DNA of 14,632 bases, from assembly GCA_016210285.1 (NCBI GenBank), contig JACQUN010000035.1, forward strand, positions 1 to 14,632, given 5' to 3'. The stretch's first letter is position 1; each line of letters starts with the position of its first letter. This DNA is from Chloroflexota bacterium. Its GTDB lineage: Bacteria; Chloroflexota; Dehalococcoidia; UBA1127; JACQUN01. The notes beneath the pieces were generated by a model, which worked only from the letters and a program-made list of their open reading frames with translations, was not told the origin of the DNA and searched no databases. Below, in pieces: positions 1,393 to 14,632 of this stretch. Position numbers and translations under genes: made by a program.

Positions 1393-1449
1393 ATTCACGT
1401 CCCTCCCTCGGGCTGTGACCGCCAGGATCTGCCAACGCCAATCTACCCT

Positions 1450-1478
1450 ATTGTTGGTGGCTGCACTTGTATGGGCAA
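1450..1478 (-). promoter_or_regulatory. Candidate sigma70-type promoter for the beta-helix gene
   Basis: On the minus strand TTGCCC (1478-1473) and AACAAT (1455-1450) are separated by exactly 17 bases, each matching four of six consensus positions. Transcription would start near 1443, giving a leader of about 50 bases before the ATG at 1392. This rests on motif matching by eye only. Confidence 0.3.
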
Positions 1479-1597
1479 TTGCGACCCGGTTGCATTCTAG
1501 TTGCGTCTGTCGTACGTATGCTCGGGAACTGTGGGCTAATCTCGAAGGCTTTGCCCCAATCCCTGCCATAAGAGGAGATGGCAACAAGTCCAGGGTG

Positions 1598-1688: not shown

Positions 1689-2372
1689 ATGTCGATTGTG
1701 ACCAGATGTTACCTCGATGTCCTGGATAGCCTTGGGACTGCCGTGCAGGAGGTCTTTGTATCGGGGCCGTCAAGGATCGGCCGCACCGCTCCCGAATCCG
1801 AAGTGGACATCACCATTCCCTCTGAGTGCCGGTCGGCCAGCCGTCTCCACGCAGTTATCGAGCCTCACGAGGGGCACGTGCGGCTGACGGACCAGAGCCG
1901 TTTCGGGACCATTGTCAACGGGACAGTTGTCCTGCACGACTCCGTGGTATTGCGCCACGGGGACGAGCTTGTCTTCGGCCTTCCCCACGATGGCTGGCGG
2001 GTCAGGCTACGCATCGCTGGAGCCTCTGGGGATACCACTGCCCCTGCTGACCCCCTGGAGTCCCTGGTGGTGTCGGAGACTCCCCGGCAGGTGAGGATCG
2101 GGCGGCTTGTCGTTGAGGAGCAGCTAGGCGCCCGACCCTTCCGGCTCCTCAAGTTCCTCGCGGACCATAAGGGCGCGTGGTACGGGATATCGTCGCTGGT
2201 GGACATCCTGTGGCCCGACCCCGAAACGGCGCCCTACCAGGCCCACCAGGCCCTGTCCCACTACAAGAAATCCGTCAACGACGTTCTGCGACCACACCTT
2301 CATGGCCAGGACGCCATCGAGTCCTGGCCTCACCGAGGCTACCGCATGCGCCAACGACTGGAGGGCGAGTAG
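1689..2372 (+). CDS. FHA domain plus OmpR-type winged-helix regulator
   Basis: The 227-residue protein has two domains. Residues about 5-115 are a forkhead-associated (FHA) domain, which binds phosphothreonine: GPSRIGR (26-32), SRLH (51-54) and NG (77-78) are its conserved binding-loop residues. Residues about 134-222 match the OmpR/PhoB winged-helix DNA-binding fold: an RPFRLLKFLADH helix, a LVDILWP segment, and HRGYRMR as the wing. No receiver or membrane segment is seen. The frame is open further upstream with ATGs at 1578 and 1620, but GAGGG five bases before 1689 is the better ribosome site; the purine run at 1572-1577 touches its ATG. It lies 23 bases before the kinase gene, so I infer that it reads the kinase's phosphorylation and acts on transcription, perhaps of this operon. 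Confidence 0.86.
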   Translation: MSIVTRCYLDVLDSLGTAVQEVFVSGPSRIGRTAPESEVDITIPSECRSASRLHAVIEPHEGHVRLTDQSRFGTIVNGTVVLHDSVVLRHGDELVFGLPHDGWRVRLRIAGASGDTTAPADPLESLVVSETPRQVRIGRLVVEEQLGARPFRLLKFLADHKGAWYGISSLVDILWPDPETAPYQAHQALSHYKKSVNDVLRPHLHGQDAIESWPHRGYRMRQRLEGE

Positions 2373-2395
2373 CGCCCTGTCCCTGGGGACGGGTT

Positions 2396-4516
2396 ATGGA
2401 TACTGCTTCCCACCCCTGGTTTGACCCCAACACGCTGGTGGGGGAAACCCTCCAGGGGTACTCGCTTGAGGCGCTCCTAGGCACTGGCGGCTTTGGCGCG
2501 GTTTACCGGACCAGGAACCCTCAGGGTGAGCCCCGGGCCATAAAGGTGCTGTACCCGCCCCGCTCTCTGGCCACGGATGACGTCCGCGTTTGGGACACCC
2601 GCCTGACCCACTTCCAGCGCGAGGTGCTCAACGCCAGAGGCTTCACTCATCCGAACATCATTCGCGTCTACGATAGCGGGCAGGGCCGCCGGCATTTTAC
2701 CGTTGCGGGCTCGGGCCTCCTACCGGCAGATGACCGCAGTGGCCAGTATCCTCTGGCCTATTATGTCGCCGAGCTCATCCCTGATGGGGTGGACCGGCAC
2801 CTGCGGGAGGGTCGGCTGTTCTCACCCCAGGAGGCCGTCCGCATCGCCCTCCAGGTGTGCGATGCCTTGATAGCCCTCCACAGCGCCAAACCTCAGATCG
2901 TGCATCGCGACCTGAACCCGGGCAACATCCGACTGGCCGATGGTGGCAGGGTGGTGCTGACCGACTTCGGCGTGGCCCGCATAGAAGGGGTCCCCGGCAC
3001 GTATGTCACCTCCGAGGGCCCTCTCATACACAGGGGCGTGGGCGCTCCCGAGCAGTTCCGGTCTGACGAGCTGGACCAGCGCACTGATATCTACCAGTGC
3101 GGCGCCCTGCTGCTGGTGATGCTTACGGGGAAGTATCCCCACGAAGGGGAGCCGCGCGTCCTCTTGGCCCAGAAGGCTGTTCCGAACAGCCTCTCCCAGG
3201 CCATCCTCCGCTGCCTGGAACACGAAAGGGCCAACCGCTTCCCGGACGCGGCTGCCCTGAAGGTAGCCCTCTCCAGCTCCCCACCTCCAACCCCTTCAGC
3301 CCGCTGGGCTGTGTCGGCCTGGCAGCGCCAGGTGGAGACGCCATACTGGCCCACGCTCACCACGCCATTGGTTGAAGGGAACGGCTGTTATCTCTGGGAT
3401 AGCCAGACCGTCTACCGGCTGAATCCAGAGACCGGCACCACCATCTGGGCGTGGAGAGCTTCTGGCCTGATCCGCGAGGGCTTCCAGGGAGCTGCAGTGC
3501 AGCTCAGCGGCGAGGGGTTGTACGTTCGCCACGGCACCTTGCTCTCCTGCCTGGACCCTCGAGGGATTGAGCGGTGGCGGGCCCGAGTGAGGAGCGCCAC
3601 CGCTGGGGCCTTTGTGGCCGCTGGCGACGCGGTGATTGTGGACTCGTACGCACACAGCGGCGGAGCGCCTCTGGGCCTGTCTGCCCTGGCCGCGAGTACA
3701 GGGGGCCTCATCTGGGACCTGCCGTTGGACGAGTACCATGTTCTGCACCTGGCGGCCGCCCAGAGTGCCCTGGTGCTGGTGGAGAGCATGGGCCTTGCCG
3801 CCTCGGGAGGGATGAGGGTGCGCACTCTGGATGTTTCGTCTGGCGAGGTAAGGGGTGTGTTCGCCCTGGCGGAGCACTTGCGCGAGCTGGAGGCCCACCT
3901 GGGGCCTGCTCCACTCCTGCGGGCGCTCCAGCCCGTCGTGATGCAAGAGGGTGCCATCGTTGTTGGGATCACCCCCCTATCTTATCCGAGACCCTATCTG
4001 GCGTGCCTCGATGCCGGGTTGAAGGTGCGCTGGACCCACTACCTGGACCTGGCTCCGGCTTCGTCCAATGGTGAGGTCTCGCTGGCAGGGTCGCAGGACC
4101 ACCTGGTGGCCTCGGTGGTCACACGAGATGCCGAGGGTAGAACCACCGCCGGATGGCTCGCAGGCCTTGACCTCCAGTCCGGTGAGCGCGTGTGGCAGCG
4201 CGAAGGCACACCGGGGGCCGTCCTCTCCCGCCTGACGTCGGGAGGCCAAGAGCCCCTGGTGTTTGGCATCGTTCAAGAACCTGGAAGGAGCGGCAGAGGC
4301 CGCGGCCACTGGCGCCTTGCAACGCTGGATCCCGCCACAGGCCAAGAGCTGTGGCGAGGGCAGGAGCGGGATGCTCCGGGCGGCTCCCTGCCCCTGGGCC
4401 CCGTAGTGACTCCCACGCGAGTGTACGTCCAAGTGCCAACCAGGCCACCGGCGCCCAGGCGCAGAGGCGCGGTCGAGACGGGGCCTGGCGCCATCGAAAC
4501 CTTTCAGCGACGGTGA
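2396..4516 (+). CDS. Ser/Thr protein kinase fused to a PQQ-type beta-propeller
   Basis: The 706-residue protein starts with a Hanks-type kinase domain (about 22-290): glycine loop GTGGFGAVY (29-37), ATP lysine K50 in AIKVL, helix-C glutamate E76, catalytic loop HRDLNPGN (170-177) with D172, DFG at 190-192, and APE at 217-219. The usual lysine two residues after the catalytic aspartate is asparagine (N174). From about residue 310 to the end come at least six beta-propeller blades of the PQQ/BamB kind, each with a pattern like LNPETGTTIW, LDPRGIERW, LDLQSGERVW or LDPATGQELW. No transmembrane helix joins the two parts, so the propeller should be cytoplasmic, perhaps a partner-binding or sensing platform. 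ATG 2396 is chosen because the longer in-frame reading to 2177 runs through the FHA gene and precedes no domain. Substrates are unknown; the FHA protein and membrane partners in the operon are obvious candidates. Confidence 0.9.
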   Translation: MDTASHPWFDPNTLVGETLQGYSLEALLGTGGFGAVYRTRNPQGEPRAIKVLYPPRSLATDDVRVWDTRLTHFQREVLNARGFTHPNIIRVYDSGQGRRHFTVAGSGLLPADDRSGQYPLAYYVAELIPDGVDRHLREGRLFSPQEAVRIALQVCDALIALHSAKPQIVHRDLNPGNIRLADGGRVVLTDFGVARIEGVPGTYVTSEGPLIHRGVGAPEQFRSDELDQRTDIYQCGALLLVMLTGKYPHEGEPRVLLAQKAVPNSLSQAILRCLEHERANRFPDAAALKVALSSSPPPTPSARWAVSAWQRQVETPYWPTLTTPLVEGNGCYLWDSQTVYRLNPETGTTIWAWRASGLIREGFQGAAVQLSGEGLYVRHGTLLSCLDPRGIERWRARVRSATAGAFVAAGDAVIVDSYAHSGGAPLGLSALAASTGGLIWDLPLDEYHVLHLAAAQSALVLVESMGLAASGGMRVRTLDVSSGEVRGVFALAEHLRELEAHLGPAPLLRALQPVVMQEGAIVVGITPLSYPRPYLACLDAGLKVRWTHYLDLAPASSNGEVSLAGSQDHLVASVVTRDAEGRTTAGWLAGLDLQSGERVWQREGTPGAVLSRLTSGGQEPLVFGIVQEPGRSGRGRGHWRLATLDPATGQELWRGQERDAPGGSLPLGPVVTPTRVYVQVPTRPPAPRRRGAVETGPGAIETFQRR

Positions 4517-4630
4517 AGGGGGTCCCGCAAGCCAAGCGCAACCAACCTGCAAGCCATTCTGCACTCCGGCCACCTTCTCAGGCTCTAAGCTGCTTGAGGA
4601 AGGACAGGATACCCGGATCGGAGGTGCAGC

Positions 4631-5218
4631 ATGGCGACCGTGGTGTGCAGCGGCTGTGAGGTGATCGTAGATTCAAGGAGTATCGCATGTTCGCGATGCC
4701 AGACGCCCGTCGGGTACCTGGGAGGCACGCCGGTCACCACGAGCCGGTGGCCGCATCGGCAAGAGGCGCTGGGGGCACCGGCGGCAGTCGCCAGGCCAGC
4801 GACGCCGCCGGTCTTCGAGGGGGAGCGGGCAACGCGGGAACGAGAGCGGCGGGTGGCGCGGGCCAAGGTCTTGCTGGCGGAAGGGAAGCCTGCCGGCGAT
4901 GTCATCATGCTGCTGCTTCGGGAGGAACCCGTGGCTCCCGCGGAGGCCCAGGCCCTGGTACAAGAGGCGGCGGGGAGGCCCTTGCCCGAGCTGCCGCAGG
5001 ACAAGCTCCCCGAGGTGTTGCAAGAGGGGCTGGACGAGGAGGAGACAAGCCCAGGGAAGGATTTGCTCTGGGGGCTGATCTGGCTCCTGGGAGGCGGCGC
5101 CGTCACCCTTGCGACCTACGCGGCGGCCGCTCCAGGGGAGACGTATTTCATCTTCTACGGCGCCATGCTCTACGGGGCATTCCGCCTGCTCAAGGGCATG
5201 GCGAAGGGCGTGGTGTAA
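4631..5218 (+). CDS. Zinc-ribbon protein with helical hairpin and two C-terminal membrane helices
   Basis: The 195-residue protein opens with a zinc ribbon: C6-x2-C9 and C20-x2-C23, followed by QTPVGYLGGTP. Residues about 75-118 are charged and helical, with a LLAEG-DVIMLLL-EEPVAPAEAQALV pattern like the short two-helix motifs often found beside zinc ribbons. Two hydrophobic stretches follow at about 143-166 and 172-190, so the protein is probably membrane anchored with the ribbon in the cytoplasm. GGAGGT five bases before the ATG fixes the start. The ribbon and the residues right after it closely match the N-terminus of the gene at 12078, showing a shared module on different bodies. No family beyond this is recognised; a scaffold or adaptor role is inferred from context. 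Confidence 0.83.
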   Translation: MATVVCSGCEVIVDSRSIACSRCQTPVGYLGGTPVTTSRWPHRQEALGAPAAVARPATPPVFEGERATRERERRVARAKVLLAEGKPAGDVIMLLLREEPVAPAEAQALVQEAAGRPLPELPQDKLPEVLQEGLDEEETSPGKDLLWGLIWLLGGGAVTLATYAAAAPGETYFIFYGAMLYGAFRLLKGMAKGVV

Positions 5219-5255
5219 GGGCCGCCTTGCTGGCGGACGAGCGCGCACATGGTGA

Positions 5256-5329
5256 GGAGGCCCCATGAACAAGAACGTCCTCTGGCTGGGGGCTGCGGTG
5301 GCGGTGCTGGTGGGCATGTTGGTGTGGAG
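5256..5329 (+). repeat. Duplicated 5' module, copy A (RBS plus signal-anchor codons)
   Basis: This 74-base stretch, running from the ribosome binding site GGAGGCCCC through the membrane anchor codons, matches 7459-7532 at 67 of 74 positions by my count. The two genes diverge sharply after it. Confidence 0.8.
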
Positions 5330-7076
5330 GGACCCCTTCGACTGGTTTCCTTGGCCAGAGGGTACTTGCATTGCTGAACCTTGTCAACCTACCTCTCCAG
5401 CCACTGCTGCACGCACTGATGGGCGGCCCATCAACATCAGCATCGCCAGCTCCATCACTAAGCGGGAGTGGCTGGACGCCGCCATCCCCGCCTTCAATGA
5501 GGCCTCCAAGTCCGATAGCAGCCTCCAGGTCAACGGGAAGCCCATTGTGGTCACGGAGGTCAAGGAGGAGGATGCCCTGGCGCCCGGGACCTTCAAGCCC
5601 TACCGGTCCCCCACCCAGGCCAGAGACACCCGGGACGGCAAGATCATGCCCACGATCCTCTCGCCGGCCGACGAGGCCTGGGTGCTCTGGCTGAACCGTG
5701 AGTGGAGGGCCACCCACGGGGGACAGGAGATCGTTACAGCCAAGGCGCAGAGCGTGGCCCAGACCCCGATTGTCATCGCCATGTGGCGCTCCCGCGCTCA
5801 GGCCTTGGGATGCTGGCCCAGTCCCACGCCGGAATGCACCTGGGCTCGGTTCCGCACCCTCGCCGCCAGGGCCGAGGGTTGGGGGCTCTTTGGGCATCCA
5901 GAATGGGGCCAGTTCAAGTTCGGCTACGCCTACGTCGGCGAGTCCGACGTAGGCACCCAGACGGCAGTGATGGTCTGCATGATGGGGCTCCACAAGACCA
6001 CGGGGCTGACGGTCGCAGACATTGACGGCAACAACGGCTGTGGCCAGGCCATTGTGGACGTGGAGAAGGCCAAGGTCCGCAGCGGGACCAGTAGCCCTTG
6101 GCTCCTGGATGGTATGGTGCAGAGCGGGCTGGACGCGGTGACCACCTACGAGAAGGAGGTCGTCGCCTATAACATCAAGAACCGCCAGACCCTGCGGGAG
6201 CCCCTGGTGGCGGTGTACCCCCAGGACGGCACCGTGGTGGCGGGGCACCCCTTTGCCATCCTGGACAGGGCGCCCTGGGTCACTGCCGACCAGGTCGAAG
6301 CCGCCAAGGTGTTCCAGGCCTTCCTCCTCTCCAGTGAGTGGCAGCGCAGGCTTTTGGAGACGGGAATGCGGCCCGCCGACCCCGGTGTGAAGCTGGGCTC
6401 GCCCATTGAGCTGGGCAACGGCGCCAACCCGGATGGAAACCTGGTGCGGCTGGAAGTGCCCGAAACCCTGGTGCTGAACCGCATCATCGAGGTCTGGCAA
6501 CAGGTGAAAAAGCCGGCCGTCATCGCCCTGGTGTTCGACAAATCGGGGAGCATGAACGGCGAGAAGATCACGGCCGCCAGCAAGGGCGCCATCGCATTCG
6601 TCAACGCGATGTACGGCAAGGATTGGCTCCTGTGGATGCCTTTTGACGACCAGGTGTTTGTTGGGGTGCAGGGGCCGAAAGCCGAGTCTGGGGAGCGGCT
6701 CGTGGGGGATATCGCCGCGACACCCGCCAGCGGGGGAACGGCTCTCTACGATGCGGTGGGCCAAGCCTTCACTATGCTGTCTGACATGCGATCCCAGCGG
6801 GGCAAAGATCCTGCTCGCTACGGGATCGTGGTCCTGTCTGACGGCAGGGACACCAACAGCACCTCCTATACTTTGTCGGTGCTGGAGGCGCGCCTCAGGC
6901 CCTTGGAGCAAGACCCTTCGGGCATCCAAATCCATACCGTCGGCATCGGCGGAGATGTAGACGATACCATCCTGGCCAAGATCGCCGCCGCAGCCCATGG
7001 GAAGTACTGGAAGGCCAAGACGACCTCTGTCCGGGAGATGGAGCTCATCTACCAAGAGATCGTCAAGTACTGGTAG
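5265..7076 (+). CDS. Membrane-anchored solute-binding and vWA domain protein (copy 1)
   Basis: The 603-residue protein has an N-terminal membrane segment (about 5-21) without a lipobox, then a type-2 periplasmic solute-binding fold (about 55-385). Typical features include INISIASS at the start, HPEWGQFKFGYAYVGESDVG at the hinge region, VAVYPQDGTV and, near its end, a QVEAAKVFQAFLL/ETGMRPAD helix. A vWA domain occupies about 418-603 with a complete metal site: D425, S427 and S429 in DKSGS, T492 in SGGTAL, and D526 in LSDG. The domain order matches the solute-binding and VWA protein family seen in Chloroflexota and Actinobacteria. GAGGAGG four bases before the ATG fixes the start. No ABC permease or ATPase is nearby, so transport is unlikely; ligand sensing or metal-dependent assembly outside the membrane is inferred. 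The ligand is unknown. Confidence 0.88.
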   Translation: MNKNVLWLGAAVAVLVGMLVWRDPFDWFPWPEGTCIAEPCQPTSPATAARTDGRPINISIASSITKREWLDAAIPAFNEASKSDSSLQVNGKPIVVTEVKEEDALAPGTFKPYRSPTQARDTRDGKIMPTILSPADEAWVLWLNREWRATHGGQEIVTAKAQSVAQTPIVIAMWRSRAQALGCWPSPTPECTWARFRTLAARAEGWGLFGHPEWGQFKFGYAYVGESDVGTQTAVMVCMMGLHKTTGLTVADIDGNNGCGQAIVDVEKAKVRSGTSSPWLLDGMVQSGLDAVTTYEKEVVAYNIKNRQTLREPLVAVYPQDGTVVAGHPFAILDRAPWVTADQVEAAKVFQAFLLSSEWQRRLLETGMRPADPGVKLGSPIELGNGANPDGNLVRLEVPETLVLNRIIEVWQQVKKPAVIALVFDKSGSMNGEKITAASKGAIAFVNAMYGKDWLLWMPFDDQVFVGVQGPKAESGERLVGDIAATPASGGTALYDAVGQAFTMLSDMRSQRGKDPARYGIVVLSDGRDTNSTSYTLSVLEARLRPLEQDPSGIQIHTVGIGGDVDDTILAKIAAAAHGKYWKAKTTSVREMELIYQEIVKYW

Positions 7077-7108
7077 CAGACGGTGCATCTGGCGGAGAGG
7101 AGGCAGGC

Positions 7109-7471
7109 ATGCCGCCACCCGACTGCCCAAAGTGTGGCTACGGGGTAGTGAACTGGACAGATGTCTACTGTGCCCGGTGCGGTGAGCGCTTGCCTGGCCT
7201 GCCTGAAGGGCTGCGGCAAAGCAAGCAGACGGCGTGGAATTTAGGAATTCTCCTGATGTTTTTTTTGGCCCTGCCCATGCTGGGCGCCGGCATTGCCCTG
7301 TGGTTCATGGGCCCGGCCTGGTTCCACTATCGGGAGAACACTCTGGTCCGAGCCATCAGCATTGGCCTCATAGTGGGAGCCCCTATTCTTTTCTTCGCCG
7401 CGTTATTCTTCGACACCCTCGCCGGACATATTCGCTGGTCGGGGGGAAGGCCAAATAAGGAGGCCCCATGA
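7109..7471 (+). CDS. Small zinc-ribbon protein with two membrane helices
   Basis: The 120-residue protein has a zinc ribbon at the N-terminus (C6-x2-C9 and C21-x2-C24, ending GERLPGLPEG). Two hydrophobic segments follow at about 43-65 and 82-101, and a short polar tail ends the protein. The start is set by AGGAGG five bases before the ATG. Its stop overlaps the next start in an ATGA, so it is translationally coupled to the second solute-binding/vWA gene. The layout (ribbon gene directly before a solute-binding/vWA gene) repeats that of 4631-7076, though this ribbon is not close in sequence to that one. A run of eight T bases at 7259-7266 lies within the first membrane helix. Function is unknown; it may be a dedicated partner or chaperone of the vWA protein. 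Confidence 0.8.
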   Translation: MPPPDCPKCGYGVVNWTDVYCARCGERLPGLPEGLRQSKQTAWNLGILLMFFLALPMLGAGIALWFMGPAWFHYRENTLVRAISIGLIVGAPILFFAALFFDTLAGHIRWSGGRPNKEAP

Positions 7472-7532
7472 GCAAGAACGCCTTCTGGTTGGGGGCTGCG
7501 GTGGTGGTGCTGGCGGGCATGGTGGTGTGGAG
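7459..7532 (+). repeat. Duplicated 5' module, copy B (RBS plus signal-anchor codons)
   Basis: Partner of 5256-5329: it includes the ribosome binding site and the first 21 or so codons (SKNAFWLGAAVVVLAGMVVW against NKNVLWLGAAVAVLVGMLVW). Confidence 0.8.
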
Positions 7533-9447
7533 ATTCTTGCCTGGTGTGCTAGGGGAATCCACCGACGGGGGTGTCAGCAGTCCGTCGCCGGTATCCCAGC
7601 CGGGACCTAGCGTCAAGGTGGTGCATTGGGCCACCGGCCACCTAACGCGGCAGGGGAAGGATAGGGATGGGAAGGAGTTGCGCTTGCTGCCGGTGATGGC
7701 TGAGGAGTTCAACAAGGCTGGCGAGAGGACCGAGTCCGGTAAGCGGATCGTGGTCGAGGTTCATGATGTCCCCTCGGAGCTACAGGGCAGGTACCTGGTC
7801 GAACGGGTGACAACCGGAGTCCGAATTGACCTCCGCCAGATGACCAATGGGTACGTTGCTCAGGAAACCTCGGACTCCGACCCCGTCATTGTTACCCCCT
7901 CCGACGCCCACTGGCTGGTCAGCGCCAATCACGACGCTGGCCGCGCCCTAGTGGACCTCAGCGCTGCTCGGAGCATCGTCAGCCCAGTCATCGGCATCGT
8001 CACCTATGAGGAGATGGCCAGATGTCTGGGCTGGCCGGAGAAGGCTATCGGCTATGCCGACATCATAGCCCTGCGAAGCGACCCCATGGGTTGGGCCAGG
8101 TACCCCTGTGCCAGGGCCGCATGGGGGCAGCGGCCTCTCCTGGCATTCACTGACCCCACTACATCCAGTACTGGCCGGAGCCTCCATCTTGCCCTCTATT
8201 CCTTTGCCTCTGGCAAGCCTCCCGAGCAACTCACCCTGGAGGATGTCACCGACCCGCAGGTAGTCAGTTACGTCAAGCAGTTCCAGGGTCTGATAGACCA
8301 CTACCTGATCGGCACCACTGTATTGAATACCAAGGTACACCAGGGGCCTCGCTACGGCCACTTCTTCATCATGCCCGAGGACAACCTTATCCAGCTGTAT
8401 GAGGGGACCGAACGTGCGTTCATCCAGGGTAAGAAGGTCACAGCCCCGCCACTACCCAAGGACCACCGTATGGTGATGATCTACCCCAGGGAAGGGTCCA
8501 TGCCCCGCACCAACTGCGCCTGCATCGTTCAGGCAGAGTGGGTGAGCAACGAGCAGGTGGAAGCAGCCCAGAGGTGGATTGACTTCCTCCGGAAAGATGA
8601 GCAGCAACGGAGCTTTATGAGCGCCGGCTTCCGGCCGGGCATCGGGACGGACGTTTCTCTCACCGACCCCACCAGCAAAATAAACAGCAAGTACGGATTG
8701 GACCCGACACAACCAACGCGGGTGCTCTTCCCCTCTCTGATGGACCCGACAGTCGCCGCAGCCATTGACGATTCCTGGATAGAAGTGAAACGGCCGAGCA
8801 TTGTGACCTGGGTCCTGGACACGTCCGGTTCCATGGAAGGCGCCAAGCTCCAACAGGCCAAGGATGGAATGATTGGTGCTCTGGACAACATGGCCAGGAA
8901 TAACTGGGCCGGCTTCCTCACCTTTTCCGACACGACCCATACCCGCATCCCGGTTGCGCCGCTGACGGAGAACCGCTTTAGAATCGCAGATGCTGTTCAG
9001 GGAGTGCAGGCGAGCGGCGGGACCGCCCTCTACGACGCCATCAAAGCTGCCATTGAGATGACGAACGCTACGCCGGGGGAAGCCGATGCGATTCGCGCGG
9101 TTATTGTCCTCACCGACGGCAAGGCCACCCGCGGCGAGACAGGCTTGGATGACCTCATCCGGATGGTCTCGTCGGATGAGACTCCCATCAGCAGCTTCTC
9201 GGGTTTAGAGAATACCTCTCCGGTGGACGACCGTGGGAGGTTACTCGAGAAGACAGAGGTAGCCGGCATCGGGCTGGCTCTGGCTATAGAGACTCGCTAC
9301 CCCATCCAGATTTTCTTCATTGGAATCGGCGAGGATGCCGATATGCAGATTGGCCGGATGCTGGCTGAAGCGACCGGCGCGGAATTCCAGGGAGTAACAG
9401 AAAACGACCTCGCCCAGGTGCTAGAGGAGTTCAGCAAGTACTTCTAG
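7468..9447 (+). CDS. Membrane-anchored solute-binding and vWA domain protein (copy 2)
   Basis: The 659-residue paralogue of the gene at 5265 has the same plan. A membrane anchor (about 5-22) is followed by a solute-binding fold (about 45-410), containing VIVTPSDAHWLVSAN, VMIYPREGS and, near its end, a NEQVEAAQRWIDFL/SAGFRPG helix. A C-terminal vWA domain (about 445-659) has an intact metal site: D451, S453 and S455 in DTSGS, T519 in SGGTAL, and D550 in LTDG. The vWA part is longer than in copy 1, with extra sequence at about 565-600 after the LTDG strand. AAGGAGG four bases before the ATG and the four-base overlap with the previous gene fix the start. Outside the first 22 residues and the vWA motifs the two copies are strongly diverged, so they probably bind different ligands or partners. 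Confidence 0.88.
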   Translation: MSKNAFWLGAAVVVLAGMVVWRFLPGVLGESTDGGVSSPSPVSQPGPSVKVVHWATGHLTRQGKDRDGKELRLLPVMAEEFNKAGERTESGKRIVVEVHDVPSELQGRYLVERVTTGVRIDLRQMTNGYVAQETSDSDPVIVTPSDAHWLVSANHDAGRALVDLSAARSIVSPVIGIVTYEEMARCLGWPEKAIGYADIIALRSDPMGWARYPCARAAWGQRPLLAFTDPTTSSTGRSLHLALYSFASGKPPEQLTLEDVTDPQVVSYVKQFQGLIDHYLIGTTVLNTKVHQGPRYGHFFIMPEDNLIQLYEGTERAFIQGKKVTAPPLPKDHRMVMIYPREGSMPRTNCACIVQAEWVSNEQVEAAQRWIDFLRKDEQQRSFMSAGFRPGIGTDVSLTDPTSKINSKYGLDPTQPTRVLFPSLMDPTVAAAIDDSWIEVKRPSIVTWVLDTSGSMEGAKLQQAKDGMIGALDNMARNNWAGFLTFSDTTHTRIPVAPLTENRFRIADAVQGVQASGGTALYDAIKAAIEMTNATPGEADAIRAVIVLTDGKATRGETGLDDLIRMVSSDETPISSFSGLENTSPVDDRGRLLEKTEVAGIGLALAIETRYPIQIFFIGIGEDADMQIGRMLAEATGAEFQGVTENDLAQVLEEFSKYF

Positions 9448-9465
9448 CGGGCCGAGAGGCAACTT

Positions 9466-10686
9466 ATGGGGATGCCGAACATGATGGAGCCGAGAGTCCC
9501 CTACGAGGACTTGCGGCGGCAGCTCAGGCGGGAGCTCATTCGCTCTGCCCTGCTACGCGGGGATATGGGCCCGCTGGCCTTCCTCTGGAGCGCGGGAGAG
9601 GGCCTCTTCTTGGCCGTGCTGCGCTCGACGGACCTGGCGCTGCTCTGGTCGGCCCTGGCCGCGCTCTTTGGCATGCTTATGGTGGCGGGCTACATACAAG
9701 ACAGGGCCAAGCAGGAGTCGGCTTGGCGGAGGGTGGCCGAGGTGCGTTTTCCTGTACGACCGATCAGCGCGCTCTCCGCGCAAGAGGCGGTGCAGCAGGG
9801 AACCGTTCTCTTTGTGGGAATTGCCCAAAAGGTTGGCGCCATCGAGAAACGGAGCGGCGTTTCCAGCGACCTGCGCCGGGCCCTGGAAAACGCCTTCGGC
9901 CTGCTGGCCCTTCACTACATAGAGGCCAAACAGGGCGCGGGCTCCGCCGTGGCGGGCGAGGTCTTGCAGGAGTTAGATACGATGACGCGTCTGCTGGACG
10001 CCATCCACGATTCAGGGGCCGCTGTGGACCCGGCCCTGGGGGTCCAGTTGGCTCGAGAGACCGAGGAGACCCTGTTACGGCTCTGGGAGCGGCAGAACAC
10101 CACCGAGTTCGAAAAGTTGCAGAGAGACCTCCAGATTGGATTTTCTCAGCTGAGCTTACAGGCTGGGCTCAAAGCCCTCGGGCTGTTGGTTGAGGCCTAC
10201 CGCCTCCTCCAAGACGTTCTGGAGCAGAAGACAGGGACCGAACCTCTTGTGGTGGGGATGGTCCCTGGGCTGGCAGAGGAGACCATGGGCGAGGGGTTGA
10301 ACATTCTCCGAAGAGCCCTCGGTTTGGCCCAGTCGGTCCATGCCTCAAGGCCGAGCCAAATGGAGCAGGAGATCGGTGAGCTTCAGGGTGCGATTGCGGA
10401 GCTCAAGACGCAGGGACAACAGGCTGAGCTGCTCGAGATCCGTGAAAGGCAGCTTGCGTCCCTCGAAGGGAAGCTCAGAAAGATTCAGCAGCAACAGCTA
10501 GGGCTTGAACGCCTCCTGCTGGCGTGTGGCGACTGCGAGCTTTCCCTGTTCGACGCCCGGATCGATCTGGCGGCACTCCAAGCTAACGTGTCGGAAGCCA
10601 CCATCGGCGCTGTCACTGAAAGGCTGCGCAGGGCCATTGGCCAGGCCAGAGAGCTGCAAGAGGAGCTCAGGAGGCTGGGGCTGTGA
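9466..10686 (+). CDS. Membrane-anchored helical / coiled-coil protein
   Basis: I do not recognise a family for this 406-residue protein. It has a basic amphipathic N-terminus (16-31), a hydrophobic region about 35-52, and a clear membrane helix about 57-77. A long, almost wholly helical soluble part follows. Residues about 299-352 have the charge and leucine spacing of a coiled coil (QEIGELQGAIAELK, then RERQLASLEGKL). CGDC occurs at about 355. GAGAGG six bases upstream supports the ATG at 9466; further in-frame ATGs follow at 9472, 9481 and 9484. It begins 18 bases after the second solute-binding/vWA gene. TelA genes are often paired with an XpaC-type membrane protein of similar plan, and this may fill that place, but I see no diagnostic XpaC motif. 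Confidence 0.8.
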   Translation: MGMPNMMEPRVPYEDLRRQLRRELIRSALLRGDMGPLAFLWSAGEGLFLAVLRSTDLALLWSALAALFGMLMVAGYIQDRAKQESAWRRVAEVRFPVRPISALSAQEAVQQGTVLFVGIAQKVGAIEKRSGVSSDLRRALENAFGLLALHYIEAKQGAGSAVAGEVLQELDTMTRLLDAIHDSGAAVDPALGVQLARETEETLLRLWERQNTTEFEKLQRDLQIGFSQLSLQAGLKALGLLVEAYRLLQDVLEQKTGTEPLVVGMVPGLAEETMGEGLNILRRALGLAQSVHASRPSQMEQEIGELQGAIAELKTQGQQAELLEIRERQLASLEGKLRKIQQQQLGLERLLLACGDCELSLFDARIDLAALQANVSEATIGAVTERLRRAIGQARELQEELRRLGL

Positions 10687-10711
10687 ATGGGGATGGCGAC
10701 CTTAAGCGCTG

Positions 10712-10730
10712 GAGTCTCGCGGCGAGACTC
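10712..10730 (+). promoter_or_regulatory. Perfect palindromic hairpin in the gap before the TelA gene
   Basis: GAGTCTCG and CGAGACTC form a perfect 8-bp stem around a CGG loop. No T run follows, so it is not a standard intrinsic terminator. Its core (GTCTCGCGGCGAGAC) recurs nearly unchanged in the gap at 12968-12982. It could be a protein-binding site, an RNA-processing site or an attenuator. Confidence 0.5.
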
Positions 10731-10842
10731 GTGCATCTCTAGCTCAACCAGATTGCAATCCCACCACAAGCCATTTCTCAACTAGGACTCGTCTACCATT
10801 GGTACAGTGGCGGTGGACAAGGCAATGGCAAGGAGGAGCGCG

Positions 10843-12024
10843 ATGACCACAGACCAGAACCCCGGCCAGACGCCCGAGCCGATCTCGGAGATAGTCCCCG
10901 TGAGCGGCAAACAACCCGTGGCACCCCAGGGGCTGTCAGACGCGGAGGTCCACGCGCTGCAAGCCCGGGCTGCCGAAGTCGTCCACGGCCTGGTCGAGGC
11001 CAGCGGCAGCAAGGAGATGGCCATCGTGGACAGCATCTCGGCCGTTGGCATCCAAACGCAACGGCAGGCCACCGGTGATTTCAACCTGCTGCGGGCCCGT
11101 GTTGGGGACATGCTGGCGGGCCGCGGCCCAGGTGAACAGGTGTCCAAGGACCTGGTAGACCTGCGGGTGACCCTGGACCAGATTGATCCCCAGAGGATCA
11201 CGAACCCGAGCATCCTCCAGCGGATTGCCTACTTGCTGCCCTTCACTGGGGGCGTCAGCGCCGTGGTGAAGGCCCTGGAGCGGATCGCCGTCCGTTACCA
11301 GACGGTGTCCCAGCAGGTGGTCGTGGTAGAGGCCCGGCTCAGGGAAGGGCGCCTCATGCTCACGCGCGACAACATCGAACTGCGGAAGCTCTACGAGCAG
11401 GTGGAATCGGCCCAGGGGCCTATCCAGAAGAATGCCTACCTGGGCGAACTGGTGATTCAGCAGCTAGACCAGTCGCTCCAGGGCATCAGCGATGCGCAGA
11501 AGCGAGAGAGGGTCCAGGAGGCCCTGCACGACGTGACCATGCGTGTGCAGGACCTGCGCACGATGCAGGAGGCCCATGCTCAGTTCCTGGTGAGCCTCCA
11601 GATGACCAGGCAGAACAACACGCGGCTGGGCCAGGCTGTGGACCGCACGCTTACCCTGGCCACCAACATGGTCATGGTAGGCCTGGCCATCCAGTCGGCC
11701 CTGGCGCGGCAGCGCCGGGTCCAGGAGGCCACCGAGAGGACGCGGGAGTTTCTGGGCAATCTCCTGGTGTCCAATGCCACCACCATCAGACAGCACACCA
11801 CGGAGATTGGCGACATCTACAACAGCCCGGTCGTCGCCGTGGACAAGATCACCCAGGCCCACAACCAGCTCATCGAGGCCATCAACCTGGCTGACCAGCT
11901 CAAGACCGAGGGTATCGCCGCCGCCAGGGAGAACATTGCCAAGCTGGGTCAATTGGCCGCCGAAATGGAGCGGCGGGCTGTGGGGCTGCAAGCGCCGCCT
12001 GAAACCAGGGCACTGGAAGCGTAG
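10843..12024 (+). CDS. TelA-family (toxic anion resistance) protein
   Basis: The 393-residue protein matches the TelA/KlaA family (Pfam TelA) along most of its length. The first 30 residues are polar and Pro-rich. Family features are LLPFTGG (131-137), the LREGRLMLTRDNIEL stretch, LGELVIQQLDQ, and the highly conserved block from about 256 to 350 starting RQNNTRLGQAVDRTL and running through TERTREFLGNLLVSNATTI to DKITQAHNQLIEAI. It is helical and soluble, and probably acts at the inner face of the membrane. TelA proteins are linked to tellurite and cell-envelope stress tolerance, but the biochemical role is unsettled. The frame is open to a GTG at 10807, but AAGGAGG six bases before ATG 10843 decides the start. 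The 156-base gap before it is the longest in the operon and holds a hairpin, so it may have extra regulation. Confidence 0.9.
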   Translation: MTTDQNPGQTPEPISEIVPVSGKQPVAPQGLSDAEVHALQARAAEVVHGLVEASGSKEMAIVDSISAVGIQTQRQATGDFNLLRARVGDMLAGRGPGEQVSKDLVDLRVTLDQIDPQRITNPSILQRIAYLLPFTGGVSAVVKALERIAVRYQTVSQQVVVVEARLREGRLMLTRDNIELRKLYEQVESAQGPIQKNAYLGELVIQQLDQSLQGISDAQKRERVQEALHDVTMRVQDLRTMQEAHAQFLVSLQMTRQNNTRLGQAVDRTLTLATNMVMVGLAIQSALARQRRVQEATERTREFLGNLLVSNATTIRQHTTEIGDIYNSPVVAVDKITQAHNQLIEAINLADQLKTEGIAAARENIAKLGQLAAEMERRAVGLQAPPETRALEA

Positions 12025-12060
12025 CCCGCCGACACATCAGTTCAGGTCTTGTCGCTCGTA

Positions 12061-12077
12061 GGGCAAGGGAGGTGCCC
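12061..12077 (+). promoter_or_regulatory. Ribosome binding site inside a small hairpin
   Basis: GGGCA (12061-12065) and TGCCC (12073-12077) can pair, presenting the Shine-Dalgarno sequence AGGGAGG as the seven-base loop directly before the ATG at 12078. Such an arrangement could expose or mask the site, tuning translation of the zinc-ribbon gene. Confidence 0.35.
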
Positions 12078-12950
12078 ATGCCTACCGTGAGATGCATTGG
12101 CTGTGGCCGAGAGGTCAGCGTCGCTTCCATCGCCTGCCCGAATTGTCAGACGCCGATTGGGTATAAGGGGGGCACCCCCGCACCTTCGTATCCGCGCGCC
12201 CAAGAAGCGGAGAGAGCCATGCCAATCCTCACCAGTCTCACGGCATCAACAGATGGCCACAATGGCGATGGCGGGAGAGGCTCCAGCCTGGGGCGAGCCG
12301 CCGTGAGGGCGCACTATTGCCCCAACTGCGGCAGTCCCGCGGTGGAGGGCGATCGGTTCTGCTCCTCGTGCGGGCACCCGTTTCAAACAGAGCCCCAGGA
12401 GCTGCGATACAGGATTTCTGCGCTTCGGGTGGTCCTCATATCCTTCCTCTCAGGGGGACTGTACCTCTTCTACTGGCTCTTTCTGACCTGGAAACAGTAC
12501 CGGGACCATAGCCGGGAGGAGGGGTATCCCGTTTGGCACGCCCTTACCCAGTTGGTGCCCATCTATGGTCTGTACCGATTCCACGCCCATGTGCGGTCCT
12601 ACAAGGAGCTGCTGGACCAGGTGGGCTTGCGCCACTCTCTCAGCCCTGGCCGGGCGGTGGTGACGGTGGTGGTCACGAATGTCATGGACTACATCGTCTG
12701 GAATTCCGAGAGTGTCAGCCCGCTACTCCTGGCCATCCATGCGGCATCTGTGGTTATTGTCGCTGGGCTGCTGTTCGCTATCCAGAGCAACTTGAACAGG
12801 TACTGGGCCCACCTGCCCAATGTCGTACTTCGCGAGGCGAAGGTAGGCTTCGGTGAAGTTGTCTTCGCCATCGTGGGGGTCCTCATCTGGCTTTCGGCGA
12901 TCGGCAGTGTACTGGACGCTGCGAACCCAGGCTCGGGGATCGGAGTATGA
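12078..12950 (+). CDS. Double zinc-ribbon, DUF4234-like multi-pass membrane protein
   Basis: The 290-residue protein begins with a ribbon of C6-x2-C9 and C20-x2-C23, followed by QTPIGYKGGTP, closely matching the start of the protein at 4631. A low-complexity linker leads to a second ribbon (C81-x2-C84, C95-x2-C98, YCPNCGSPA and FCSSCGHPF). The C-terminal half has about four hydrophobic segments. The first part (LRVVLISFLSGGLYLFYWLF, then WHALTQLVPIYGLYRFHAHV) resembles DUF4234-type membrane domains. ATG 12078 is preferred over GTG 12072 because GGGAGGT is then correctly spaced and the paralogue starts at the same point. Both ribbons are expected in the cytoplasm. An adaptor role within a membrane complex is inferred; the biochemical function is unknown. 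Confidence 0.82.
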   Translation: MPTVRCIGCGREVSVASIACPNCQTPIGYKGGTPAPSYPRAQEAERAMPILTSLTASTDGHNGDGGRGSSLGRAAVRAHYCPNCGSPAVEGDRFCSSCGHPFQTEPQELRYRISALRVVLISFLSGGLYLFYWLFLTWKQYRDHSREEGYPVWHALTQLVPIYGLYRFHAHVRSYKELLDQVGLRHSLSPGRAVVTVVVTNVMDYIVWNSESVSPLLLAIHAASVVIVAGLLFAIQSNLNRYWAHLPNVVLREAKVGFGEVVFAIVGVLIWLSAIGSVLDAANPGSGIGV

Positions 12951-12964
12951 ATGCAAGCGCCTCA

Positions 12965-13004
12965 CAGGTCTCGCAGGGAGACGAAGCCGGCTGAGACCTG
13001 CGAG
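12965..13004 (+). promoter_or_regulatory. Overlapping inverted repeats before the repeat-protein gene
   Basis: CAGGTCTC (12965-12972) pairs perfectly with GAGACCTG (12993-13000), and CTCGCAGG (12970-12977) pairs perfectly with CCTGCGAG (12997-13004). The two 8-bp stems share bases, so they exclude one another. A third, smaller inverted repeat (GTCTC...GAGAC, 12968-12982) copies the hairpin core at 10714-10728. No T run follows. The set could form a switchable leader RNA or a multi-site operator. Confidence 0.4.
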
Positions 13005-13052
13005 GGGGCTGACTGCTCCCAGACACAGTGAACCCATAAGGAGAGGCGAGCC

Positions 13053-14632
13053 GTGGCTACCCAGGATTCTCTCAACCCCACCGGACAAGCAGTAGGCGAT
13101 AGGGAGCGCCCCGCCGTGACCGCTAGAGGCTTCGTCGCTCTCTTTCTTTTCGTGACCTCGCTGACCCTGATTCCAGTCCGAGACGCTGTGGCGCACCAGT
13201 TGATCCCACGGGAGTTTGCTACTCAAGCGGTCGCGGCCTCCGTCAGCGGAGTCTTGCTGTGGGTGGGCGTGGCCCTCTCGGCCGTCACCGGCTTTGCCGC
13301 ACGCCGAGCGTTGCTCTGGCTTGTTCTGCCCTTTGCCCCCGAGCCAGTTCGCTATCTGGCTGTGCTCATAGCCCGGTCCCTCGGCGAGACGATGAAGCGC
13401 ATCACGCTGATCGCAGGTCGCCTCGTCGGGGTGCTTATCACCCTGGGCCGAAGGGGACTGGCGGCCCTGCGAAGGCTGGTGGTCCCTCTTGCAGGGATGG
13501 TGGGACGCGTAGCCCTAGTGGTGGTATCCTTTCCCTTCGTCCTGGTGGCTGGGGTGGCTGCGCTGACCTGGAGAGTCCTCTACCCTCCAGGAAGGGTGGT
13601 CGTATCCGGCCTCTCGCACGTGATCCTTGCCCTCATGAACCTCCTGGGGCACTTCGTCGCTCGTGTGCTCAGCGCGCTGGCGACTCTCGTGACGGATGTC
13701 ATGAAGGCCATTGGGTTGGTGCTCGCCTACCTGGCGCGGGGCCTCGCGTTCGTCGGACGCATGGCGCTCAGCGTGCTCATGCCTCCCGCCACCTGGCTCC
13801 GGCGGGCAGTGGCCTGGGGAGTTCGCATGGTAGCGGCAGTGGCCAGGGCCGCATGGTTGGGGCTTGGGGCCGTGTTGAGCGCCCTGCGGGCCATGTTGCT
13901 GCTCGCCCTGCGAGGGATCGCCCGCGCCATGGGGGTCCTCTACCGTTCTGCTCTTCGGGTGCTTGGGGTCCTGGGCCGCATGCTGGCCTCTGTTGCCAGG
14001 TTCCTGGTCGCCGCTGTGGTGTTGGTGACCAAAGCCGCCTGGGCCATACTGGTGCACGGAGGGCACGGGCTGGCTGTCGTGGGCCGCGTTGTGCTGGCAG
14101 TGCTCATGCCTCCCGCCACATGGCTCCTTTGGGTAGCGGGCCGGGGAGTTAGCATGGTAGCGGCAATGGCTAGGGCCGCATGGCTGGGGCTTGGGGCTGT
14201 GCTGAGCGCCCTGCGGGCCATGTTGCTGCTCGCCCTGCGAGGGATCGCCCGGGTCGTGGGGGTCCTCTACCGTTCTGCTCTTCGGGTGCTTGGGGTCCTG
14301 GGCCGCATGCTGGCCTCTGTTGCCAGGTCCCTGGTCGCCGCTGTGGTCCTGGTGGCCAAAGCCGCCTGGGCCATATTGGTGCATCTGGGGCGCGGACTAG
14401 CCGTCGCGGGCCGCACTCTGCTTGCAGTCCTCAGCCTTCCCGCCACGTGGCTCCGCCGGGCAGTGGCCTGGGGAGTTCGCATGGTAGCGGCGGTGGCCAG
14501 GGCCACGGGCCTGGGGGTCCGGGCCGTGTTGAGCGCCCTGCTCCAGTTCGCTCTCCTGGCGGTGGCACCGCTCGGAAGCCTATGGGCAGGTACCCTGGCT
14601 GCGATGAGGGTAGGATGGAAGCTGGCGGTGCA
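13053..14632 (+). CDS. Arg-patterned hydrophobic helical repeat protein (3' partial)
   Basis: From GTG 13053 the frame stays open for 526 codons to the window edge; AAGGAG at 13038-13043 gives a nine-base spacing. The first 26 residues are polar. Membrane-like segments follow at about 27-42 and 60-95. From about 113 on the protein is almost entirely Ala, Leu, Val, Gly, Met, Trp and Arg. Between residues 113 and 526 the only acidic residue is D215. Basic residues fall every seven positions in many places (repeat positions 9, 16, 23, 37 and 60, 67, 74 and 96, 103), giving long hydrophobic helices with a basic stripe. Residues 243-526 are tandem 109-residue repeats; 134-242 look like a decayed copy. 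I recognise no family. Membrane-lying or phospholipid-binding helices, or a pore or scaffold, are possible. The frame has normal GC-rich third positions. Confidence 0.78.
   Translation, partial: MATQDSLNPTGQAVGDRERPAVTARGFVALFLFVTSLTLIPVRDAVAHQLIPREFATQAVAASVSGVLLWVGVALSAVTGFAARRALLWLVLPFAPEPVRYLAVLIARSLGETMKRITLIAGRLVGVLITLGRRGLAALRRLVVPLAGMVGRVALVVVSFPFVLVAGVAALTWRVLYPPGRVVVSGLSHVILALMNLLGHFVARVLSALATLVTDVMKAIGLVLAYLARGLAFVGRMALSVLMPPATWLRRAVAWGVRMVAAVARAAWLGLGAVLSALRAMLLLALRGIARAMGVLYRSALRVLGVLGRMLASVARFLVAAVVLVTKAAWAILVHGGHGLAVVGRVVLAVLMPPATWLLWVAGRGVSMVAAMARAAWLGLGAVLSALRAMLLLALRGIARVVGVLYRSALRVLGVLGRMLASVARSLVAAVVLVAKAAWAILVHLGRGLAVAGRTLLAVLSLPATWLRRAVAWGVRMVAAVARATGLGVRAVLSALLQFALLAVAPLGSLWAGTLAAMRVGWKLAV
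13452..13778 (+). repeat. Degenerate repeat unit preceding the tandem array
   Basis: This 327-base stretch, one period upstream of the clear array, resembles it at protein level toward its end: VTDVMKAIGLVLAYLARGLAFVGRMALSVL here against VTKAAWAILVHGGHGLAVVGRVVLAVL in the next unit. Its first half is only loosely similar. Confidence 0.4.
13779..14105 (+). repeat. Tandem 327-bp repeat, unit 1
   Basis: The unit encodes 109 residues starting MPPATWLRRAVAWGVRMV and ending GRVVLAVL. It matches unit 2 at roughly 85-90 percent of bases by eye, including a block near identical from LSALRAMLLLALRGIAR through GVLYRSALRVLGVLGRMLASVAR. The period is exactly 327 bases, a multiple of three. Confidence 0.93.
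14106..14432 (+). repeat. Tandem 327-bp repeat, unit 2
   Basis: Starts MPPATWLLWVAGRGVSMV and ends GRTLLAVL, the same 109-residue length as unit 1. Most base differences from unit 1 cluster near its start and end. Confidence 0.93.
14433..14632 (+). repeat. Tandem 327-bp repeat, unit 3 (cut by window end)
   Basis: Begins SLPATWLRRAVAWGVRMVAA, closer to unit 1 than to unit 2. After AVLSALL it departs from the other units (QFALLAVAPLGSLWAG), so this may be a terminal, diverging copy; the window edge hides the rest. Confidence 0.8.

What the first reader, a model, noticed from the sequence alone, without database searches (positions are those of the whole stretch)
1689..14632. Candidate undescribed membrane stress or signalling operon: FHA/kinase, duplicated SBP-vWA, zinc ribbons, TelA and an Arg-repeat protein
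Ten same-strand genes with gaps of -4 to 156 bases join a phosphothreonine reader with a DNA-binding domain, a Ser/Thr kinase with a propeller, two extracytoplasmic solute-binding/vWA proteins, three zinc-ribbon membrane proteins, a coiled-coil membrane protein, a TelA protein and an unusual repeat protein. TelA, vWA and kinase parts are known together in Ter-type stress systems, but this composition is not one I recognise. No phosphatase, TerC or TerD gene is in view.
Basis: partly seen in the sequence, partly recalled or inferred. Interest (0 to 1): 0.78.

Follow-up and report, generated by a model that had tools for sequence, protein, structure and literature searches.

The report
Membrane-sensing operon with a giant helix
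A run of ten neighbouring genes, probably from an uncultured Chloroflexota bacterium, looks like a membrane-spanning sensor and signalling system, and its odd arginine-rich protein is most likely the front half of a third sensor, built around a very long helix that should lie on the membrane.

Summary
The ten-gene cluster is real, and relatives show its main parts belong together.
- In L001 the DNA-binding domain of FHA protein A (56% identity) is fused through a hydrophobic stretch to the SBP of D (48%).
- In L158 a kinase is fused to a homologue of coiled-coil protein G, followed by TelA and a D-type SBP-vWA (51%).
- G-TelA-SBP-vWA recurs in L088 and L093/L154; L001 has SBP-vWA-G-TelA.
- Of 40 phylum SBP-vWA loci, 9 carry a kinase beside or fused to it; 4 of these 9 are convergent look-alikes.

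'Arg-repeat protein' J is cut by the contig end. Its 416-residue tail keeps one hydropathy phase (3.64 residues per turn) with arginines on one face. Among 1,551 reading frames scanned, only J and N-terminal extensions of SBP-vWA relatives score this high, so J is most likely the front of a third SBP-vWA.

Best reading: an envelope-sensing system (SBP-vWA outside, kinase and FHA-wHTH inside) with a TelA/giant-helix membrane module. Ligand, targets and physiology are unknown. The exact ten-gene set was not seen elsewhere. In 400 phylum genomes, close SBP-vWA relatives and TelA co-occur no more than chance.

The parts
1689..2372 (+). A: FHA domain (motifs GR31, SRLH51, NG77) plus C-terminal winged-helix-like domain
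   Evidence: Pfam FHA 50 bits, Trans_reg_C 18 bits, below cut-off; motifs; C-terminal part 56% identical over 129 aa to L001:1860-3584
2396..4516 (+). B: Ser/Thr kinase plus PQQ/BamB-like propeller; no transmembrane segment seen
   Evidence: Pfam Pkinase 92 bits, PQQ_2 54 bits; GTGGFGAV, AIKVL, HRDLNPGN, DFG; no TM in crude scan
4631..5218 (+). C: zinc-ribbon protein, paralogous to the ribbon of I
   Evidence: 54% identity over 46 aa to I; no Pfam hit
5265..7076 (+). D: SBP-vWA protein with N-terminal hydrophobic anchor; MIDAS motifs DKSGSM425, GGTALYDA490, LSDG524
   Evidence: Pfam SBP_bac_11, VWA; hydrophobic segment; motifs; 51% identity over 559 columns to L158:11156-12895
7109..7471 (+). 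E: small zinc-ribbon-like protein with two TM segments
   Evidence: weak ribbon hits, E 0.03; TM scan
7468..9447 (+). F: SBP-vWA protein with N-terminal hydrophobic anchor; MIDAS motifs DTSGSM451, GGTALYDA517, LTDG548
   Evidence: Pfam; 553 relatives at E<=1e-10 among 7,993 scored candidates; AlphaFold model pLDDT 85.2, pTM 0.80; PDB matches to SBPs and vWA domains
9466..10686 (+). G: TM plus coiled-coil protein; homologues next to TelA in four other loci, one of them fused to a kinase
   Evidence: alignments; L001, L088, L154; L158 kinase fusion
10807..12024 (+). H: TelA, divergent subtype
   Evidence: Pfam TelA 130 bits, cut-off 30; 59% identity to L001 TelA
12072..12950 (+). I: zinc ribbons plus at least three TM segments
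   Evidence: Pfam Zn_ribbon_3 36 bits, two stretches; TM scan
13053..14632 (+). J: cut by the contig end; two N-terminal hydrophobic segments then a giant amphipathic helix region; probable N-terminal half of a third SBP-vWA
   Evidence: the same kind of region is N-terminal to SBP-vWA in L001, L002, L003, L088 and, cut by contig ends, L092, L093
13383..14630 (+). giant amphipathic helix region of J (residues 111-526): period 3.64 residues per turn, 41 Arg on one face
   Evidence: power 43.6, 0 of 200 shuffles as strong; three window controls 2.9-6.2; Arg resultant 0.73 at the best period
13773..14541 (+). 327-bp tandem repeat (109 residues, about 30 helical turns)
   Evidence: TRF, 2.4 copies, 86% matches

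Best explanation
A transmembrane envelope-sensing system. Outside the membrane, SBP-vWA proteins (D, F and probably the missing half of J) bind a small ligand in the SBP domain and use the metal site of the vWA domain to assemble (inferred). G, a membrane coiled-coil protein, and TelA (H) link them to the inside. Kinase B phosphorylates a partner, and FHA-wHTH protein A reads phosphothreonine and binds DNA, probably controlling the operon or an envelope regulon (inferred). The giant Arg-patterned helix of J lies on the inner leaflet and, with TelA, senses or stabilises the membrane, the place where relatives have PspA beside, or SPFH fused to, the SBP-vWA. Shown: domains, motifs, fusions, neighbourhoods, helix periodicity. 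Inferred: ligand, phosphotransfer, DNA target, membrane binding, direction of signalling.
For: A wHTH-hydrophobic stretch-SBP fusion in L001 joins A and D. [kinase-TM-G]-TelA-[D-type SBP-vWA] in L158 joins B, G, H and D. G-TelA-[helix-SBP-vWA] in L088 and L093/L154 and [helix-SBP-vWA]-G-TelA in L001. In 197 genomes of one order, all 3 with the close SBP-vWA also hold a TelA like H, found in only 1 other genome. Of 40 phylum SBP-vWA loci 9 carry a kinase, the nearest within 63 bp in each, against 0 of 40 TelA loci; kinase-SBP fusions in L076, L078, L080, L082, the one in L078 with an N-terminal zinc ribbon. MIDAS and FHA motifs are intact. PspA lies directly before a helix-SBP-vWA in L092. SPFH-SBP-vWA and kinase-SBP-vWA fusions occur among listed relatives.
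Against: The ten-gene set is not seen elsewhere. Phylum-wide, TelA and close SBP-vWA share 3 of 400 genomes, no more than chance. Four of the 9 kinase loci (L071, L072, L073, L075) are convergent, near-identical arrangements, so they are neither operons nor independent, and in the fusions the distance is zero by construction. The kinase has HRDLN where the usual catalytic-loop Lys sits. The winged helix of A rests on a sub-threshold Pfam hit. In 197 genomes TelA is absent from 193, so the counts are small. No regulator target, phosphatase or expression data. Gaps of 102-156 bases could hold internal promoters. C is not clearly a membrane protein.
Confidence: 0.55

Rival explanations
1. A Ter-type metal or oxyanion stress/resistance locus in which TelA is the effector and the SBP-vWA proteins are its sensors.
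For: TelA present; TelA sits beside SBP-vWA, SBP and XpaC-like genes in 8 of 35 TelA loci examined; structural SBP matches include sulfate and ferric-ion binders.
Against: No TerC, TerD or other Ter family hit among the ten proteins; SBP matches to thiamin and sugar-phosphate binders are as good; TelA here is a divergent subtype.
Confidence: 0.18
2. An assembly or adhesion complex: vWA proteins as extracellular scaffolds, with kinase/FHA regulating assembly.
For: vWA matches to inter-alpha-inhibitor heavy chains and integrins; A matches TagH and EspM models, far below their cut-offs.
Against: No secretion ATPase, pilin or sortase family hit among the ten proteins; the SBP domain is unexplained; wHTH-SBP in L001 points to transcription.
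Confidence: 0.1
3. A nutrient-uptake accessory locus: SBPs feeding an ABC transporter encoded elsewhere.
For: SBP domains in D and F.
Against: No permease or ABC ATPase hit in the window proteins; SBPs are fused to vWA, kinase, SPFH, wHTH or helix domains in relatives.
Confidence: 0.06
4. An anti-phage defence system built on the kinase.
For: PADLOC matches of B to PD-T4-6 and mad6.
Against: The matched stretch is the kinase domain; none of the other nine proteins has a PADLOC hit at E<=0.01. Defence genes around related loci were not searched for.
Confidence: 0.04
5. Chance neighbours in one metagenome contig, not one system.
For: Exact set not found again; patchy occurrence and no phylum-wide co-occurrence.
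Against: The same parts recur in other orders or as fusions in L001, L088, L093/L154 and L158.
Confidence: 0.07

Closest known systems
TelA-XpaC-like-SBP-SBP-vWA gene clusters in other genomes of the phylum (L111, L112, L113, L115, L116, L119, L120, L132)
   Same: TelA next to an SBP-vWA gene and a small membrane protein
   Different: They have a stand-alone SBP and an XpaC-like gene (Pfam-confirmed in L111 only); G is not detectably XpaC-related; no kinase match in those loci; no giant helix among their reading frames
Kinase-SBP plus SBP-vWA pairs (L076, L078, L080, L082)
   Same: Hanks kinase coupled to SBP and next to SBP-vWA; L078 adds a zinc ribbon
   Different: No TelA or G match in those loci; kinase is fused to SBP rather than to a PQQ propeller
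Sulfolobus ArnA-ArnB-ArnC network (PMC6509490, passages read)
   Different: The solved ArnB paralogue has vWA, beta-sandwich and helix bundle, no SBP; ArnA carries its own zinc finger, A does not
PSP envelope stress systems (PMC11237479, passages read)
   Same: Membrane-stress logic; in relatives PspA is a neighbour (L092) and SPFH/band-7 a fusion partner
   Different: No PspA in the window; the words vWA and TelA do not occur in that paper's main text
Perilipin 4 giant amphipathic helix (PMC5889406, passages read)
   Same: Very long repetitive amphipathic helix; one relative (P0022) has plain 11-residue repeats
   Different: Bacterial, Arg-rich with almost no acidic residues, strongly hydrophobic, fused to a transmembrane sensor in relatives; no homology shown
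Ter-type stress systems (recalled; the 2012 paper I looked up is not held)
   Same: TelA and a vWA domain
   Different: No TerC/TerD family hit; vWA is SBP-fused and predicted outside the membrane

Membership tests
TelA family (PF05816) | score above Pfam cut-off | tested here: met
   H 130 bits against 30
Ter-type stress system (definition recalled) | TerC/TerD-class proteins in the locus | tested here: not met
   none among the ten window proteins; beyond the contig not testable
Ter-type stress system (definition recalled) | TelA present | tested here: met
TelA-XpaC-SBP-SBP-vWA cluster | XpaC (PF10112) partner | tested here: not met
   no Pfam hit for G; G profile against XpaC-like profile, probability 1.2 (only three rows in the G profile)
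TelA-XpaC-SBP-SBP-vWA cluster | SBP-vWA near TelA | tested here: met
   F is two genes before H
PSP system | PspA/IM30 protein | tested here: not met
   no PF04012 hit in the window proteins; found beside helix-SBP-vWA in L092
ArnA/ArnB network | FHA and zinc finger in one protein | tested here: not met
   A has FHA plus winged-helix-like domain, no ribbon hit
ArnA/ArnB network | vWA with ArnB-like fold | tested here: met
OmpR/ToxR-type winged helix | Trans_reg_C above cut-off | tested here: inconclusive
   18.4 (A) and 18.9 (L001) against 26.2
Giant amphipathic helices (perilipin 4-like in form) | long phase-coherent amphipathic helix | tested here: met
   power 43.6 over 416 aa; helices of 81-105 residues in a low-confidence model
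Giant amphipathic helices (perilipin 4-like in form) | 11-residue repeats | tested here: inconclusive
   clear in P0022 (lag-11 identity 0.39); weak in J (0.153 against 0.130 expected)
Giant amphipathic helices (perilipin 4-like in form) | binds membranes or lipid droplets | not testable with these tools
   needs protein
Active Hanks-type kinase | catalytic motifs | tested here: inconclusive
   glycine loop, AIK, HRD, DFG present; HRDLN replaces HRDLK

The most novel reading that the evidence does not exclude
A new class of bacterial membrane receptor. A giant Arg-patterned amphipathic helix (about 100 to over 700 residues in the sequences seen, period 3.64 residues per turn, sequence repeats of 11, 29, 40, 44, 51 or 109 residues that each come close to a whole number of helical turns) lies on the inner leaflet as a lipid-packing or curvature gauge. 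It is fused through a TM segment to an outward-facing SBP-vWA sensor, works with TelA or PspA inside, and signals by kinase and FHA-wHTH, with helix, SPFH, kinase and wHTH acting as interchangeable inner domains of one receptor family.
Probability: 0.35. Interest if true: 0.82.

Novelty: new variant of a known kind. Interest (0 to 1): 0.62.

Why it matters
The role of TelA is still unclear (one 2026 paper says so for its Listeria homologue). These loci tie TelA by neighbourhood, and its partner G by fusion, to an outside sensor, a kinase and a DNA-binding reader, which gives testable partners. The giant helix looks as if selection acts on helical phase rather than on sequence, and it would be an unusually long bacterial membrane-binding helix built into a receptor.

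Tried and rejected
- Own genome: not held, so nothing right of 14632 could be read.
- G against XpaC-like proteins: no profile match.
- Single-sequence search with G found only itself. A three-row profile found 4 proteins, the window's own copy and the L088 one among them, but missed the known L001 and L154 homologues, so it does not show how rare G is.
- N-terminal 115 aa of J against an HMM of six relatives' N-termini: rank 2 of the 2,002 records (10.2 bits), one shuffle higher. This is weak homology evidence. The full-length J record was not among the reported rows.
- A first kinase pattern scan returned no kinase at all, known ones included; it was faulty and was replaced by phmmer.
- Defence: kinase-domain PADLOC hits only. 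Rfam: 0 matches at gathering score. TelA against PDB sequences: 0 at E<=0.01.
- AlphaFold of J: pLDDT 53.5, pTM 0.31, used for secondary structure only.
- Divergent left-hand frame 1-1587: no Pfam hit.
- Rows left out: five fetched TelA places (L104, L105, L106, L108, L109) were not put into the 35-locus count. In one search, 30 of 120 listed relatives lacked the SBP start motif and were not classified. Of 76 SBP-vWA places, loci around 40 genomes were fetched and used.
Full report
WHAT IS THERE. A divergent frame (1-1587, minus strand) has no Pfam hit. The contig is 14,632 bases long and no genome is held for it. The four relatives of F found in named genomes are Chloroflexi or Dehalococcoidia MAGs, so the host is probably a Chloroflexota bacterium. 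This is inferred from protein similarity only; a relative of F at 60% identity is also labelled Spirochaetales. Domain calls are: FHA in A, kinase plus PQQ propeller in B, SBP plus vWA in D and F, TelA in H, zinc ribbons in I and weakly in E. The MIDAS motifs of both vWA domains and the FHA motifs are intact. The kinase has HRDLN where HRDLK is usual.

THE ARG-REPEAT PROTEIN. J runs off the contig. Beyond residue 110 its 416 residues are 9.9% Arg, 0.2% Asp and 0.2% Glu. Its hydropathy repeats with a period of 3.64 residues at a power of 43.6, against 2.9 to 6.2 for three other window proteins and 0 of 200 shuffles. At that best-fitting period the 41 arginines keep to one face of a helix over about 114 turns (resultant 0.73; 0.46 and 0.32 at 3.62 and 3.66). 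I scanned 1,551 reading frames of 220 aa or more, in all six frames of the window and of the loci held. Scores of 18 or more belong only to J and to N-terminal extensions of SBP-vWA relatives (L001, L002, L003, L088, L092, L093 and duplicate loci of these). The next value, 16.0, is the antisense strand of J, then 12.1. In five relatives the strongest or near-strongest sequence repeat is 11 (P0022), 29 (P0056), 40 (P0086), 44 (P0002) or 51 residues (P0035), with identities of 0.28-0.43 at that lag; in J it is 109 residues. Divided by 3.64 these give 3.02, 7.97, 10.99, 12.09, 14.01 and 29.95 turns. Selection thus seems to act on helical phase. The argument is partly circular, because periodic hydropathy by itself raises identity at such lags, and other relatives show weaker lags (15, 18, 22) that fit less well or only as chance. 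An AlphaFold model gives helices of 81, 105 and 103 residues, but at pLDDT 53.5. In L088 a helix-SBP-vWA fusion lies directly after TelA; in the window J lies one gene after TelA. J is therefore most likely the front of a third SBP-vWA. Sequence homology of the N-termini alone is weak.

RELATIVES OF F AND THEIR INNER DOMAINS. A profile of F found 553 proteins at E<=1e-10 among 7,993 scored candidates, 120 of them listed. The SBP start motif was found in 90 of 120: 61 have at most 110 residues before it and 29 have more. Of those 29, 20 are the helix type (period 3.60-3.66, at most 2 of 500 shuffles as strong). Four carry SPFH/band-7 (PF01145); P0030 looks similar but Pfam finds no SPFH in it. 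Two carry kinases and two are other types (P0040, P0059). Some extensions are cut by contig ends.

LINKS BETWEEN THE PARTS. (1) L001:1860-3584 joins a winged helix 56% identical over 129 aa to the C-terminal part of A with an SBP 48% identical over 365 aa to D, with a hydrophobic stretch between them. That winged helix was found in only 1 of 400 phylum genomes, G001 itself. (3) L088 and L093/L154 hold G-TelA-[helix-SBP-vWA], and L001 holds [helix-SBP-vWA]-G-TelA. (4) L092 has PspA (83 bits) directly before a helix-SBP-vWA that is cut by the contig end. (5) Of 40 SBP-vWA loci from the phylum, 9 carry a kinase, the nearest within 63 bp in each; none of 40 TelA loci does. Four of the nine (L071, L072, L073, L075) are convergent to the SBP-vWA and look like one arrangement; five (L076, L078, L079, L080, L082) are on the same strand. 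L076, L078, L080 and L082 fuse kinase to SBP, and L078 begins with a zinc ribbon. (6) Of 35 TelA loci examined, 20 have an XpaC-like neighbour and 8 an SBP-vWA neighbour. The XpaC-like label comes from my own iterative profile: Pfam confirmed L111 (PF10112, 47 bits) but not L115 or L126.

CO-OCCURRENCE, BOTH WAYS. In one order (197 genomes) the close SBP-vWA family is in 3: G001, G525 and G573. A TelA like H is in 4: those 3 plus a contig-edge fragment in G558. Leaving out G001, which supplied the profile, that is 2 of 2 against 1 of 194 others (probability about 1.6e-4 by hypergeometric count, not corrected for kinship). A 912-residue gene divergent from the system in L001, L088 and L092 hits the same 3 genomes plus 4 others, one long match at a contig edge and three short ones. 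Against this, across 400 phylum genomes SBP-vWA (61 at E<=1e-20) and TelA over its cut-off (35) share only G001, G107 and G368, against about 5 expected. That SBP-vWA search missed the more distant SBP-vWA genes that one search found beside TelA, so it understates the wider association. The close family is patchy (3 of 76 in another group).

MECHANISM. The simplest model that uses every link: SBP-vWA proteins face outward, bind a ligand and assemble through the vWA metal site. G and TelA couple them to the cytoplasm. B phosphorylates a partner, and A reads phosphothreonine and acts on DNA. Arg-rich and nearly without acidic residues, the J helix should sit on the inner leaflet by the positive-inside rule (established knowledge), where relatives place PspA or SPFH. 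The fusions show which domains belong together; the order of signalling is inferred. The archaeal ArnA-ArnB-ArnC network, where FHA, vWA and kinases control gene expression (PMC6509490, passages), is the closest working analogy, not a family assignment.

NOVELTY. Searches for TelA, vWA, XpaC, PspA, SBP and Chloroflexi combinations found no description of this set in their listings; only open-licence PMC papers are held. The PSP survey PMC11237479 has no vWA or TelA in its main text (passages). PMC12791056 (passages) says the function of the Listeria XpaC-TelA pair is not well established. Known families re-combined, with one domain that no Pfam or NCBIfam model recognises, make this a new variant of a known kind.

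Noticed in passing
L001:3896-6634, L088:1637-4417, L092:3933-6659 (all minus strand): A conserved 908-926 residue protein (weak TPR hits only) is divergently encoded beside the system in three relatives; long matches in G001, G573, G525 and, at a contig edge, G527 among 197 order genomes. Not in the window. Possibly an alternative regulator.
   Followed up: partly
L003:2689-3906 and L044:8981-11089: The protein near SBP-vWA in G's position may carry a C-terminal sigma-70 region 4-like HTH (L044: PF04545 E 0.0008, 19.3 bits, below the 24.1 cut-off; L003: only DUF1492 E 0.07), suggesting a membrane-tethered transcription factor.
   Followed up: partly
L105:376-1926: A flotillin (Band_7 92 bits, Flot 31 bits) precedes a divergent TelA match (2119-3015) in genome G191, an SPFH-TelA pairing.
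   Followed up: partly
window 1-1587, minus strand: Divergent 529-aa frame cut by the contig start; no Pfam hit; by reading it resembles a secreted beta-helix protein.
   Followed up: partly
L089:9477-11332: A second SBP-vWA copy in genome G440, split over two frames, near a recombinase-like gene (by reading).
   Followed up: no
L044-L083 (phylum SBP-vWA loci): 17 of 40 loci hold two or more SBP or SBP-vWA genes above 60 bits, so the window's duplication is not unusual in itself.
   Followed up: yes
window 13515-14384, minus strand: A 289-aa antisense reading frame inside J's repeats also shows the 3.64 periodicity (score 16.0), most simply a mirror of the coding strand rather than a gene.
   Followed up: partly
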